From positions 1 to 64,000 of the forward strand of contig NZ_FQUY01000016.1 of assembly GCF_900129195.1 (NCBI RefSeq): a DNA stretch of 64,000 bases, given 5' to 3'. Source of the DNA: Desulforamulus putei DSM 12395 (GTDB lineage: Bacteria; Bacillota; Desulfotomaculia; Desulfotomaculales; Desulfotomaculaceae). Both the position numbers and the translations under genes were made by a program. Of this stretch, positions 1 through 48,061 are shown piece by piece. Within the stretch, counting starts at the first letter, position 1; each line of letters opens with the position of its first letter. Under the pieces are notes generated by a model. It did not search any database, was not told where the DNA came from, and saw only the letters and a list, made by a program, of their open reading frames with translations.

Positions 1-160
<160 letters not shown>

Positions 161-5974: not shown

Positions 5975-8029
5975 TTAATGGGTACCTGCCGGTGCCGGAT
6001 TCGACCCATCCTTAATATACTCGTCTCTTAAGGCCAATTCTTCCGGAGCGTGCAATACCAGCATCTTACGGCCGGCATCACGGGGCACCGCATCCGGAGT
6101 GAGCAAGGAAACAACAAAGATCAGGATCAGGGCGAGGGGGACTGCCCAGATTGCCGGTTGTTCGGCCAGGGACCGGATAACAGGGTTTGCTGCATAAAAG
6201 GCGCCAAGGGACGGAATCACTTTTTTATCCGCCAGCATTACCGACACAATGGCCACCAGGGCTGAAATGCCCCCACCAAGCATACCTGTTGCCGCTCCGA
6301 TAAAACTGGTCCTGCGCCACCATATGCTTACGATAAGCATTGGGAAGTAGGATGCCGCAGCAATGGCGAAGGCCCAGCCAACCATCATATTAATGTCGAA
6401 GTTCTCTACCATAGTTCCCAGAATCATGGCCGTTACCCCCCCGCCGACGGCGGCAATGCGGAAGGCCCTCAGGCGCTGGCCGGGAGAAGCCTGCGGGTTA
6501 ATCATATTCCCGTAGATATCATGGGCCAGGGCTCCTGTAATGGAAACCAGCAGGCCCGAGAAGGTGGTCATAAAGCCGGCAAAGGCTCCGGCCGAGGTGA
6601 TCCCCGAGAGCAGGTCTCCCAGATAAGGCATTGCCCCGTTTAAGATATGAGGCATGGTCAAAACCACTGAATCTGTGCTAAAGGCGCCGCCGGTAACGGC
6701 ATATAGATGCGGTACCAAATTACGACCTAAGGCTCCCCACATGGGCGGGAACACATAGAAACAGCCCAGCAATATCAGTACCCAAAAAGCAGTACGCTTG
6801 GCTGTCCGGCCGTCCGGATTGGTGTAAAACCGCACCAGGATGTGGGGCAGACCGGCGGTACCGCAGATGATGGCCAGAATCAGAGAATAGGTGTAAAGGA
6901 GCGGGTGCCCGTACTTACTGGTAAAAGGTCCGTAGGGTTCCAGCCACTTTTTATCTGGCGGGGCATTGGGCACTTTCTCACCTTTGGGATACATGATCTG
7001 TACATTTTCTTTACCGGCGGCAGGAAAGACGGTAAGTTTGACCGGCACGGTTTTGGGTTTGCCGTCGCTGCCGGGGGAACCTGCAGGCACAGGGTCGCTG
7101 ACGGTAAAACTGCTGCCGGGCGGAAAGATATAAAGAGTAACTTTTTTCCCGGCAATATCCCGTGTAGTGGTTTGGCCGGGCAACCCGGAGATGATCATCT
7201 TCTCCGCCGGGACAGTGGCCCCGTTGGGCAGAGGCTTGGCCGTTGCTACTGCTACTTCCGCCCCGTTGACAAAGGTGGCTGTAGCCCCGGCATTAAAAAT
7301 AATTTCATTGGATGGTGCCTGCGGCTTATAGGAGACGGTTGTGTCCTCCTTAAACTGAGGTATAGATTTGCCAGCTTCACCCTGGTTACCGATTTTGCTC
7401 ATATGCTGCTGGTAACCCCCAACCATGGAAAAAAGAATAAATATAGGGAGAGAGATGGCAAACATCTTAACCCAGTACTGAAAAGCCTGCACAAAGGTAA
7501 TCCCTTTCATGCCGCCTAAAGCCACGTTAAAGGTGATAACAGCTCCAACCAGAACAACGCCAACCCAGTAGGGAGTGTGCAGGATATTAACCAGTGCTAC
7601 TCCTGCCCCCTTCATCTGCGGCATGGTGTAAAAAAAGCCGATAACCAGAACAAAGATAACTGCAATTTTACGAAAAAGCGGGCTGGAGAAGCGCCCCTCG
7701 GCAAAATCCGGGATGGTGTAGGCGCCGAATCTTCGCAGTGGGCTGGCAATAAACAGCAACAGAAAAAGATAACCGGCTGCATACAAGGCTGGATACCAAA
7801 GTACGTCGTAACCGAATTTCATAACCATGCCGGCTATCCCCATAAAAGAGGCCGCCGATAGATATTCGCCCGAGATGGCTGCGGAATTCATGGGTACGCT
7901 GACGGAACGGGAGGCAACATAAAGATCCGCTGCGCTGCGCACCGAACGCTGTACGTAAAAACCAAGTCCGATGGTGCCGATCACCAGCACGGTTACACAT
8001 AGTAAGGGAATCCAAGAAATACCGGTCAT
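5975..8029 (-). CDS. actP: Sodium:solute symporter (acetate/ActP-like) with a large loop insertion
   Basis: 684-aa SSS-family carrier with about 13 membrane segments; the N-terminal ISGEYLSAASFMG and DVLWYPALYAAGYLF regions are typical of ActP-type cation/acetate symporters. It is some 130 residues longer than E. coli ActP. The excess is a hydrophilic stretch at about residues 205-370, rich in P, G, T and V and lacking membrane segments, placed between TM helices. SD AGGAGG lies 7 nt before ATG 8029. It follows the DUF485 gene by 12 nt, the standard pair. Substrate is probably acetate or another short carboxylate. Confidence 0.9.
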   Translation of the reverse strand: MTGISWIPLLCVTVLVIGTIGLGFYVQRSVRSAADLYVASRSVSVPMNSAAISGEYLSAASFMGIAGMVMKFGYDVLWYPALYAAGYLFLLLFIASPLRRFGAYTIPDFAEGRFSSPLFRKIAVIFVLVIGFFYTMPQMKGAGVALVNILHTPYWVGVVLVGAVITFNVALGGMKGITFVQAFQYWVKMFAISLPIFILFSMVGGYQQHMSKIGNQGEAGKSIPQFKEDTTVSYKPQAPSNEIIFNAGATATFVNGAEVAVATAKPLPNGATVPAEKMIISGLPGQTTTRDIAGKKVTLYIFPPGSSFTVSDPVPAGSPGSDGKPKTVPVKLTVFPAAGKENVQIMYPKGEKVPNAPPDKKWLEPYGPFTSKYGHPLLYTYSLILAIICGTAGLPHILVRFYTNPDGRTAKRTAFWVLILLGCFYVFPPMWGALGRNLVPHLYAVTGGAFSTDSVVLTMPHILNGAMPYLGDLLSGITSAGAFAGFMTTFSGLLVSITGALAHDIYGNMINPQASPGQRLRAFRIAAVGGGVTAMILGTMVENFDINMMVGWAFAIAAASYFPMLIVSIWWRRTSFIGAATGMLGGGISALVAIVSVMLADKKVIPSLGAFYAANPVIRSLAEQPAIWAVPLALILIFVVSLLTPDAVPRDAGRKMLVLHAPEELALRDEYIKDGSNPAPAGTH

Positions 8030-35577: not shown

Positions 35578-35665
35578 GATGTGACGACTCCCCGGACCAA
35601 AGTCCGAGGCTTCCCGGTTCATCCGGGTTGCTGCCGCAACCCGTCCCCGAAGGCCCCCGCCCGGG
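35578..35665 (-). mobile_element. IS200/IS605-type right-end / omega-RNA-like remnant
   Basis: Consecutive short hairpins: CGGAC/GTCCG (loop CAAA), CCCGG/CCGGG and GTTGC/GCAAC, read on the minus strand as GCCTCGGACTTTGGTCCGGG then GAGTCGTCACA. The pattern matches the conserved 3' end of TnpB-type elements, where the guide RNA scaffold ends. No tnpA or tnpB remains. The terminal 14 bases recur at 61624-61637. The gap to 35809 is empty and may contain the element boundary. Confidence 0.5.
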
Positions 35666-35809
35666 ATCCTTAATATTAACGGTAGTCAACTATTGTACCG
35701 CGGATCTTTAACTAGCCTCCGTATTTTAAAATATACTATAATAGCACACCCAGTGAGGCAAAAAGTACAATGACTACCCGAAGTAAAACATCGTCTTCTT
35801 GCTAATTAA

Positions 35810-37453: not shown

Positions 37454-37474
37454 GCTACACCATCCTTTTTGTTT

Positions 37475-37734
37475 ATGTCCGGACAATGTCCGGGCAAAAC
37501 ATTTGGAAATTCCTTATATCCGGACATTGTCCGGACAATTTTTATCCTGTTTTAGTTTTGTTTTTCAGATTTGTCCGGAATGTGTCCGGACAAATTATTC
37601 TCCACAGTGTATTTCATTTCCAAATTTTTTAAAAAATACTATATCGTGTATTTTAAAATAGCTTATGTCCGGACATTTTCCGGACATTCATTACATGTTT
37701 CAGGTTTTATGTCCGGACAATATCCGGACATAAA
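37475..37734. repeat. Iteron cluster 1 (TCCGGA pairs) upstream of the integrase
   Basis: Five copies (about 37475, 37516, 37571, 37664, 37709) of a unit built from two TCCGGA boxes one helical turn apart, ideal form TGTCCGGACAATGTCCGGAC. The same unit occurs eight times at 54678-54946 between parM and parR. The repeats fill the integrase promoter region. Confidence 0.9.
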
Positions 37735-37754
37735 TTAATTTTTTCGTATAGCTG

Positions 37755-38446
37755 CCGCAGGATAAAGGTACCACTGCCAGGGTTTTGACTGCCCTTACCA
37801 GGGCAGAAATAAATTCCTCCTGATCATTTTTTTACCGACCAGCTTGCATTGCTGCCGCAATGCAAGCAGCACCTACCGGTGCTGTGGTACCCTGGGCTCC
37901 CGCCCAAGAGCTTAGCTTTGCTATTGCCTTGACACTACCGTTTCAAGGCAATAGCAAAGCTAAGGTTTGACGCCCCCTGCCAGGGTCGTTTATTTATACC
38001 TACCGGTCTAAATAAACGACCCTACGGGTCTTGGACGCAAACCTTCCTGCCGGAAGCTTTGCGATATTCATCCGCCATTGGTCTGTTCCCATCAGCCCAA
38101 CGGCTATGTATTTCTTACAGGTCTTTATTCGACCCATGCGACTCCCGTCGCTCTCGACCGGGTCCCTAAAGCCGCCCTACCGGTCCGTCTCACCTACCGG
38201 TCATCGACGTTTAGACTCCATACATAGGAACGATCCCTATGATGGAAAATACTCATTTGGGAAAAATGAGCTGAGACAAGTGATTTAAGGCAGTTACCAC
38301 TGCCGCAGGTTCTACCGAACCTATCCGATCAACCTGGTTTCCACCAGGTGAAATATAATCATATGTGCTGTAACCCCAGCACGTAGGACAAAATTGTTGC
38401 AAAGCTATTCCCCCGTCAGGGGATGGCCTGGCTTGCACCAGGCCAA
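37755..38446 (-). ncRNA. Candidate large ornate structured RNA
   Basis: About 690 nt with no open frame but dense perfect stems: 37789-37806 (7 bp), 37842-37867 (11 bp), 37868-37883 (6 bp), 37911-37964 (22 bp), 37982-38023 (15 bp), 38036-38063 (6+5 bp), 38131-38164 (5+5 bp), 38289-38304 (6 bp), 38307-38322 (6 bp), 38332-38349 (7 bp), 38365-38382 (6 bp), 38425-38444 (7 bp). A long-range helix joins 37767-37774 to 37884-37891. Eight hairpin tips end in the same loop, GGUA on the minus strand; others are GGCA, GGAA or GGGA. Minus strand is inferred from neighbouring genes. Size and style recall GOLLD/ROOL-class RNAs, but identity is not claimed. Confidence 0.6.
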
Positions 38447-38462
38447 AATCTGTTAATAAAGT

Positions 38463-39425: not shown

Positions 39426-39489
39426 GATACCGGCTGCCGCCGGTATCCTCCCTCCTTTCGGATTGAATTTACCGGCTTTTAGCCTGGTA
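39426..39489 (-). promoter_or_regulatory. Stem-loop / SD / stem-loop module of the DUF6573 gene
   Basis: Downstream hairpin GATACCGGC/GCCGGTATC (39426-39447, 9 bp, loop GGCA) lies between AAAGGAGGGAGG (39448-39458) and ATG 39419; its base is 6 nt from the ATG. An upstream hairpin (39470-39489, TACC-GGC pairs with GCC-GGTA) precedes the SD. Confidence 0.7.
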
Positions 39490-46528: not shown

Positions 46529-48061
46529 TTACCAGTGGTTGTGGTTGTTAAAATTAACGGTGTACTTATGGGAATTTTTTGTACTAGAATTTTTTTGAGA
46601 CTGATTATTAGTTTCAATATAACTGATGTTCGGTAAGCTAACAGTAAATGGCCTTGGCGTTACTATTGAGCTGATGGGCAATTCTCCCAGTTCTTTTATC
46701 TCTTTAGCTTGGGGCAATCTATCCCAGCCCACTTTTTTAAGGTATAAAGGGTAGCACCACTGTATCAGTGCCAAGCAGTCCAGCGGGTGCATTCTGGCTA
46801 TTTCATCCGGGGTCATCAGGGACCTTTCGATGACCTTTTTGGTCTTTTTGCTTAACTGAAGGTGGTGAGCAACCGGTACGGTCACGTCTTCACTCTCAAA
46901 TTTGCCGTATACCGCAACTTTCCCCAGTATCCGCGAGAACATTTCTGCTGTTTCAAGATCCCCGGGGGTAACTCCCAATAGCAGAAGGGTTGGGCAGTTA
47001 GCTAAAATGTTTTTTGCTTCTTCTCTGCCGTATACATCGTCCAACTGGCTGCGGCCCTGGAGGATAAATTGAATGTGAATACCTAAACTGCGTGCTGTTG
47101 AAATAATTTCTGAAAAGCCTGGTATTTGGCCGATGTTGGCAAATTCGTCTAAAAGCATACGCACCGGTACCGGCAGTTTACGGTTGTTGCTGTCTGCCAG
47201 TTGATACAGTCGCTTAAATAAAAACATGTAGAAGGTTGAGAGGATGGGTTTTAATACTCTGTTTTCTCCTCTGACCGGTAGTACACAAAAAAGTGCTGTC
47301 TTTTTTTTACCCACATCACTTAGTTCTATTTCCTGCTGTGATAACAGGGCTGCCAGTGGTTCAGTGGTAAGCACTTTAAGTTTTGCCGAAAGGCCGGAAA
47401 CTGCGTGTTCAAAGTTAGCTGATGCGGTGCCCCGCCAGCGTTCGTAGATGGTAGCGCTAATTTTGCCCGTCTGGTAGGCTTCTTTAAAACGATAATTAAG
47501 CTGTTCTTTATCCCATGATGTAAGGCTCATCACAGTTCGCATGTGTCTTTGCTCTTCCGGAAAATCGCCCTTTAGGAGGCCCACCAGGGCTTCTAAAAGC
47601 TGGATTTCTTTTGCCACAAAATAGCCAGAATCATCTTTGGCCGCATTATTAATAAAGCATGAGGTCATTTCTGCCACTTCTGCGTCGTCACTGCTTTCCA
47701 GAATGGGATTCCAGCGGTGACTGCAGGCAGGGGTATTTAAGTTGAAAATTTTTACTTCATAGCCCATTGCTGCTAGCCAGGCAGACATAATTTCTGCCAG
47801 TTCTCCCTTGGGGTCTATAACCACCATGCTTTGACCGTCTGCTACGGCCGCAATCATGTTGCCCAGGACAAATGAGTAGGATTTACCGCTGCCAGTGCCG
47901 CCAAAGATGGCTGCATGACCAGCCAAGCTGGGCATCCCTTTAGGGGCTTTGCCGGGTATGACTCGGATGATCTCTCCGTCCAGTTCGCCAAGTATAATAC
48001 CGCCCGGGTAGGCGGTATTGGTAAACAGTTTTATCACATTAAAGGGCGCTTGTCTGGTCAA
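46529..48061 (-). CDS. VirD4/TraG-type coupling protein, ATPase part
   Basis: 510 aa. Walker A GGTGSGKSYSF (about 52-62), ID-type SMVVIDPKGELAEI, Walker B RMLLDEFANIGQIPG (about 295-309) and the RSLGIHIQFILQGRSQLDDV helicase-like motif identify a type IV coupling ATPase (TraG/VirD4). The N-terminal membrane domain is missing and is encoded by the gene just upstream in another frame. TTG 48061 with AAAGGAGAAG upstream. It pumps DNA to the transfer channel; the other T4SS genes are not in this window. Confidence 0.88.
   Translation of the reverse strand: MTRQAPFNVIKLFTNTAYPGGIILGELDGEIIRVIPGKAPKGMPSLAGHAAIFGGTGSGKSYSFVLGNMIAAVADGQSMVVIDPKGELAEIMSAWLAAMGYEVKIFNLNTPACSHRWNPILESSDDAEVAEMTSCFINNAAKDDSGYFVAKEIQLLEALVGLLKGDFPEEQRHMRTVMSLTSWDKEQLNYRFKEAYQTGKISATIYERWRGTASANFEHAVSGLSAKLKVLTTEPLAALLSQQEIELSDVGKKKTALFCVLPVRGENRVLKPILSTFYMFLFKRLYQLADSNNRKLPVPVRMLLDEFANIGQIPGFSEIISTARSLGIHIQFILQGRSQLDDVYGREEAKNILANCPTLLLLGVTPGDLETAEMFSRILGKVAVYGKFESEDVTVPVAHHLQLSKKTKKVIERSLMTPDEIARMHPLDCLALIQWCYPLYLKKVGWDRLPQAKEIKELGELPISSIVTPRPFTVSLPNISYIETNNQSQKNSSTKNSHKYTVNFNNHNHW

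What the first reader, a model, noticed from the sequence alone, without database searches (positions are those of the whole stretch)
37755..38446. Large ornate RNA candidate with a recurring GGUA tetraloop
About 690 bp with no gene contain at least twelve perfect or near-perfect hairpins and one long-range 8-bp helix. Eight tips carry the same loop, GGUA on the minus strand: 37796-37799, 37874-37877, 37936-37939, 38001-38004, 38078-type pair at 38178-38181 and 38195-38198, 38295-38298 and 38313-38316. Two of them cap very long stems (22 and 15 bp). Others end in GGCA, GGAA or GGGA. Repetition of one capped-hairpin motif in unrelated stems suggests tertiary docking or a protein that binds each tip. 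Size, mobile-element setting and lack of coding recall GOLLD/ROOL RNAs, known to form cages, but no match is claimed. The strand is inferred from neighbouring genes.
Basis: partly seen in the sequence, partly recalled or inferred. Interest (0 to 1): 0.88.

Follow-up and report, generated by a model that had tools for sequence, protein, structure and literature searches.

The report
New large RNA beside mobile-element integrases
A roughly 650-base stretch without genes, on a transferable DNA element of a Desulforamulus bacterium, encodes a previously uncatalogued, elaborately folded RNA that is conserved across its bacterial class and nearly always sits just before the gene for the enzyme thought to move the element.

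Summary
The finding holds up and grows. The minus strand of 38446-37755 folds far better than chance (z -17.5) and matches no Rfam 15 family. Homologues occur in 16 of 113 sampled Desulfotomaculia genomes: 11 of the window's type, 3 strongly diverged, 2 of a second type with a different middle. Covariation (0 of 500 shuffles on four of five measures) supports a core with a pseudoknot; one pseudoknot helix is replaced wholesale in the diverged group (GUCUCA/UGAGAC becoming GGCACCCUC/GAGGGUGUC). The RNA lies in a conjugative element, same strand as and usually immediately upstream of a tyrosine recombinase gene. Where the RNA's middle differs, the recombinase family differs too, so the two look like one module. 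The recurring loop is real, as part of a GNNA tetraloop preference (42 of 84 tetraloops; 9 of 76 elsewhere). Two of the eight listed 'tips' are not loops: they pair with each other in the core. It is not GOLLD, ROOL or OLE by covariance model. Most likely it is an RNA partner or leader of the recombinase; expression and mechanism are untested. Structured RNA family: about 0.95. Recombinase-linked role: about 0.5. RNA-guided or RNA-scaffolded recombination: about 0.1.

The parts
37755..38446 (-). Large structured RNA, type A (5' end near 38446, 3' end near 37755; ends approximate)
   Evidence: z -17.5; homologues in the order; covariation
38425..38444 (-). First hairpin GGCCUGGUGCAAGCCAGGCC, shared by type A and type B RNAs
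   Evidence: alignments and searches
38131..38279 (-). Conserved core used for covariance model R1
   Evidence: 11 of 113 genomes, E <= 1.9e-19
38272..38277 (-). P1 5' strand GUCUCA (pseudoknot)
   Evidence: 93.9% cells paired, compensatory changes; replaced by GGCACCCUC in L079
38187..38192 (-). P1 3' strand UGAGAC, lying between the two strands of helix P7
38196..38199 (-).
   Evidence: 100% paired, AU/GC and GC/UA exchanges
38181..38184 (-).
38206..38209 (-). P8 5' strand (CGUC)
   Evidence: 100% paired, five pair types at one position
38173..38177 (-). P8 3' strand
38252..38270 (-). P2 hairpin CUCAUUU/AAAUGAG
38132..38163 (-). P6 and P5: ACCC/GGGU enclosing the GCGA/UCGC hairpin
   Evidence: 88.6% and 97.7% paired, compensatory changes
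37985..38020 (-). Long hairpin with conserved arms GUUUAUU/AAUAAAC and variable 13-28 nt between them; tip GGUA 38001-38004
37911..37964 (-). Longest hairpin (arms AGCUUUGCUAUUGCC), tip GGUA 37936-37939
37472..37733 (.). Five copies of a double TGTCCGGACA palindrome between the RNA and the recombinase start
   Evidence: also seen in L043 and L044
36395..37486 (-). F0: divergent tyrosine recombinase, presumed integrase of the element
35723..35723 (.). End of sequence shared with the related element in G005: presumed left end of the element
46529..48061 (-). VirD4-like conjugal coupling protein (CD1115 family) of the same element

Best explanation
Shown: the region encodes a conserved structured nucleic acid about 500-800 nt long, read on the minus strand, with a core containing a pseudoknot and arrays of GNNA-capped hairpins. 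It forms a module with a tyrosine recombinase gene at the end of a family of Desulfotomaculia conjugative elements. Inferred: it acts as RNA, transcribed through from the upstream genes into the recombinase gene as a very long leader that is possibly cut free. It folds on its own and works with the recombinase encoded after it, either by controlling its synthesis (the recombinase or a host factor binding the RNA) or by holding the recombinase in an RNA-protein complex, so that excision and integration of the element are kept off until needed.
For: Structure: z -17.5, covariation above all 500 shuffles on four of five measures, pseudoknot helix replaced in the diverged group, sense strand favoured in 13 of 13, G-U cells 19 versus A-C 8. 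Partnership: 10 of 11 type-A RNAs have recombinase F0 downstream on the same strand; the three further genomes with F0 have a diverged RNA beside it; in the second type the middle of the RNA and the recombinase family both differ; one related element lacks both, keeping 36 bp of the RNA's 5' end. Leader-like position: in several species the last hairpin is followed within about 50 nt by the ribosome-binding site and start of F0, and the upstream gene often ends about 20 nt before the RNA.
Against: No expression data. In the window about 270 bp with palindromes separates the RNA from F0, and a terminator-like site lies there. In L079 the RNA precedes another gene (F2), then F0. In G043 F0 is 3.7 kb away and in G031 the RNA stands without F0. 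No ligand, protein contact or switching helix is known. Linkage alone could reflect co-inheritance at the element's end.
Confidence: 0.5

Rival explanations
1. A free-standing ornate RNA that works in trans and independently of the recombinase, as GOLLD, ROOL or OLE may: self-assembling or binding a host protein, and merely parked at the integrase end of the element.
For: Size 500-800 nt, many hairpins, pseudoknot, GNNA loops suited to docking; an orphan copy without F0 still fits the model well (G031, E 1.9e-19).
Against: Tight linkage to recombinases, and the middle changing with the recombinase family; no own promoter or terminator recognised.
Confidence: 0.25
2. A DNA-level element: the strand folds as single-stranded DNA during conjugative transfer, as a single-strand origin or a folded recombination site of the attC kind.
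For: Conjugative setting; fixed orientation; the model of F0 resembles integron integrase among others; GNNA loops are also stable in DNA (own knowledge); sequence-conserved hairpin arms.
Against: G-U pairs are common (19 cells); a pseudoknotted core and more than 600 nt of conserved architecture are unlike known origins; arm spacing of the conserved hairpin varies 13-28 nt.
Confidence: 0.12
3. The RNA is a working subunit of the recombinase: it scaffolds or guides tyrosine recombination, as bridge RNA does for IS110 recombinases.
For: Long structured non-coding stretch directly before the recombinase within a mobile element, as in the IS110 group (PMC11208160); middle of the RNA changes with the recombinase; RNA and recombinase are lost together.
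Against: Tyrosine recombinases recognise DNA themselves; F0 has the usual catalytic set and no obvious extra domain. The RNA shares no word of 10 or more bases with the known element end. No guide-like variable loop was identified.
Confidence: 0.1

Closest known systems
GOLLD and ROOL RNAs
   Same: Large ornate RNAs of mobile elements, several hundred nt, pseudoknots; function unknown (PMC12286853)
   Different: No covariance-model match; not in phages or near tRNA arrays; linked to tyrosine recombinases in conjugative elements; multimers untested
OLE RNA
   Same: About 600 nt, in extremophilic and anaerobic Bacillota (own knowledge for range)
   Different: No covariance-model match; different neighbours
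IS110 bridge RNA
   Same: Structured RNA encoded in the non-coding part of a mobile element beside the recombinase (PMC11208160)
   Different: About four times longer (bridge RNA near 180 nt, own knowledge); recombinase is a tyrosine enzyme, not DEDD; guide loops not shown
STAXI motif
   Same: RNA candidate near XerDC integrases, topoisomerases and other DNA-handling genes (PMC2864571)
   Different: STAXI is a tandem small pseudoknot; here one large RNA with a single core
Integron attC sites and single-strand origins
   Same: Strand-specific hairpins next to recombination or transfer functions (own knowledge)
   Different: Much longer; G-U pairs; variable arm spacing; pseudoknotted core

Membership tests
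GOLLD / ROOL / OLE (Rfam) | Match to the family covariance model | tested here: not met
   cmscan: no match at gathering in the window or ten homologous loci; nothing among hits at E up to 10 in the window
GOLLD / ROOL / OLE (Rfam) | Homo-oligomeric RNA-only complex | not testable with these tools
   needs cryo-EM or mass photometry
GOLLD / ROOL | Phage or prophage setting, often near tRNA islands | tested here: not met
   no tRNA in the window; conjugative element genes; no phage-record match
IS110-type RNA-guided recombinase | DEDD recombinase with structured RNA in its non-coding end | tested here: not met
   recombinase is a tyrosine enzyme by fold and residues
Tyrosine recombinase | Fold and R-K-H-R-H-Y residues | tested here: met
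   R182, K225, H279, R282, H346, Y355 invariant in 11 sequences; model matches XerA, Tn1549 Int, VchIntIA, lambda Int
Conserved structured RNA | Compensatory base changes in homologues | tested here: met
   R-scape not available; few independent clades
Conserved structured RNA | Transcript | not testable with these tools
   no RNA-seq held
Integrative conjugative element | Coupling protein, integrase, attachment repeats at both ends | tested here: inconclusive
   coupling protein and recombinase present; left end placed; attachment repeats and right end not found

The most novel reading that the evidence does not exclude
The RNA is an obligatory subunit of its tyrosine recombinase: an RNA-scaffolded or RNA-guided tyrosine recombination system, with the RNA's middle matched to the recombinase family.
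Probability: 0.1. Interest if true: 0.97.

Novelty: new variant of a known kind. Interest (0 to 1): 0.76.

Why it matters
Large structured bacterial RNAs are few and mostly of unknown function. This adds one with covariation support, a pseudoknotted core, two types, and a clear genetic partner (a recombinase), which gives it a testable job that GOLLD and ROOL lack. If the RNA controls or assists the recombinase, it would be a new way to govern movement of conjugative elements; if it acts as a subunit, it would be the first RNA-dependent tyrosine recombinase that I know of.

Tried and rejected
Rfam at gathering and at E up to 10: only chance miRNA-type hits, mostly to palindromes. Plasmid and phage records: nothing. 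Recombinase in viral contigs: nothing. Phylum sample of 299 genomes: only the window's own (strict filters). Attachment repeats and an empty site: not found; a 180-bp match of the G005 flank in G000 C36 did not continue as an empty site. The reading that GGUA is one strict protein-binding motif was weakened, since GGCA, GACA, GAUA, GAGA and GGGA replace it. A dsDNA operator or recombination core in the 37985-38020 hairpin was rejected because arm spacing varies. A hidden gene was rejected: no minus-strand ORF of 80 aa or more, and indels not in threes.

Full report
WHAT WAS CHECKED. The window is a contig stretch of a 3.1-Mb genome in a genus that includes Desulforamulus aquiferis (the G002 and L051 contigs have the same length). 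The eight listed GGUA positions are exact. The minus strand of 37740-38460 has an MFE of -336 kcal/mol, z -17.5, with no shuffle as stable; the plus strand reaches z -12.8. No ORF of 80 aa or more lies on the minus strand. Rfam 15 gives nothing real. Four GGUA loops sit on uninterrupted stems of 6-7 bp (shuffle mean 0.09). Two cap the two longest hairpins. Two are not loops at all (below).

HOMOLOGUES. DNA search finds copies at 96%, 75% and 75% identity in the genus and 12 of 113 genomes in the order. A covariance model of the core (R1) finds 11 of 113, each once, E 1.9e-19 or better; the class holds the same 113 genomes. A sample of 299 genomes in 214 genera of the phylum adds none (strict filters). 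The recombinase profile finds three more genomes (G066, G067, G094). Their loci hold a strongly diverged but recognisable RNA, with the same AACGUYGAUGACC stretch, the same GCGAGAGC-type stretch and the same GUUUAUU/AAUAAAC hairpin. G026 and G045 carry a second type: in G026 the 5' and 3' hairpin domains are shared and the middle is different; G045 shares that middle. That makes 16 of 113.

STRUCTURE. On a sequence-only alignment (A4), seven helices including a pseudoknot give 88.9% standard pairs, 11 pairs with changes on both sides and 35 such cells. None of 500 shuffles reaches any of these three or the covariation score (the fifth measure, further pair types, is not significant), and sliding the partners drops pairing to 27-47%. 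The core has helix 38209-38206/38177-38173 and helix 38199-38196/38184-38181, both paired in every sequence with compensatory exchanges. Between the strands of the second helix lies UGAGAC, which pairs with GUCUCA about 80 nt upstream: a pseudoknot. In the diverged group the same two places read GGCACCCUC and GAGGGUGUC in L079, with close variants in L080 and L081: nine pairs at the same distance from the core. This is the strongest single piece of evidence. It also means that the 'GGUA tips' at 38178 and 38195 are strands of a core helix. Hairpin tips in all homologues are rich in GNNA (42 of 84 tetraloops on stems of 5 bp or more; elsewhere on the contig 9 of 76 on stems of 8 bp or more). 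GGUA and GGCA dominate, and at matching positions GACA, GAUA, GAGA and GGGA occur. In the second type GGUA again dominates, with 7 stems of 4 bp or more. I read this as tetraloops that need a GNRA-like fold, probably for docking; a protein that reads the tips is not excluded.

STRAND AND NATURE. Sense folding is better than antisense in 13 of 13. G-U cells are 19, A-C cells 8, and four of the latter come from one helix misaligned by a base (the last point read from the alignment). Both favour the minus strand acting as RNA. A single-stranded DNA role stays possible but less likely. The conserved arms GUUUAUU/AAUAAAC are separated by 13 to 28 nt in different species, which does not suit a DNA recombination core.

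SURROUNDINGS. Upstream on the same strand lie genes of a conjugative element: VirD4 of the CD1115 family, topoisomerase III, a replication-like protein, an actin-like protein and DUF6573. Downstream is F0, a divergent tyrosine recombinase: weak Phage_integrase in 4 of 8 members, XerA-like in NCBIfam below cut-off, AlphaFold model with pLDDT 81.5 and pTM 0.59 matching XerA, Tn1549 integrase, VchIntIA and lambda integrase, and an invariant catalytic set. Sequence shared with G005 ends at 35723, two genes past the RNA, so F0 and the RNA lie at the element's end. The other end and the attachment site were not found. Ten of the 11 type-A RNAs have F0 downstream on the same strand (in G002 the frame is broken; in G043 it is 3.7 kb away); G031 is an orphan. 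In G066 the gene order is RNA, F2, F0. In several species the last hairpin is followed within about 50 nt by the ribosome-binding site and start of F0. In the second type the downstream gene is a different tyrosine recombinase, Phage_integrase E 8e-15 in G026, with its homologue in G045, although the rest of the element is related. In G025 a related element keeps only 36 bp identical to the RNA's 5' end in G026, and lacks both RNA and recombinase there. RNA and recombinase therefore look like one module.

HOW IT LIKELY WORKS. Shown: conservation, fold, orientation, module. Inferred: it is transcribed together with the recombinase as a leader that may be cut free, and works through or on the recombinase to set when the element moves (0.5). 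Rivals: a free ornate RNA like GOLLD or ROOL (0.25), a folded DNA site (0.12), an RNA subunit or guide of the recombinase (0.1).

LIMITS. Few clades, so the covariation rests on few independent events; no R-scape; no expression data. The window's own copy lacks about 24 nt present in related copies, so its helix there is incomplete and it may be a reduced version. The literature search was confined to open papers; nothing matching was found, which does not prove that nobody has described it.

Noticed in passing
window 37472-37733: Five spaced double palindromes TGTCCGGACA between the RNA and the recombinase start; similar ones occur in the two more distant Desulforamulus copies (L043, L044) but were not noticed in the other genera. 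Possibly operator or recombinase sites.
   Followed up: partly
window 35581-35686: A short sequence with a GGCA-capped hairpin just outside the element's left end occurs about four more times in the genome (contigs C11 twice, C43, C45): a dispersed palindromic repeat.
   Followed up: no
window 39427-39450: Another GGCA-capped hairpin on the minus strand between genes of the same element (GATACCGGCGGCAGCCGGTATC).
   Followed up: no
L042:1808-2482: A protein with the N-terminal part of recombinase F0 joined to a DUF3268 zinc-finger domain, lying right after the second recombinase.
   Followed up: no
L110:4541-4707: A related element in G025 in which RNA and recombinase are missing and 36 bp of the RNA's 5' end remains: a natural deletion of the module.
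   Followed up: partly
L082, around 6690-6840 (G031:C1:4101689-4101834): Orphan RNA copy without a recombinase or element genes nearby, among chromosomal genes; the core still scores 92 bits.
   Followed up: partly
window 38124-38131: The window's RNA lacks about 24 nt that form one strand of a helix in related copies.
   Followed up: partly
window 1-159: The contig begins inside the 5' end of a 16S rRNA gene on the minus strand, an assembly break at a ribosomal operon.
   Followed up: no
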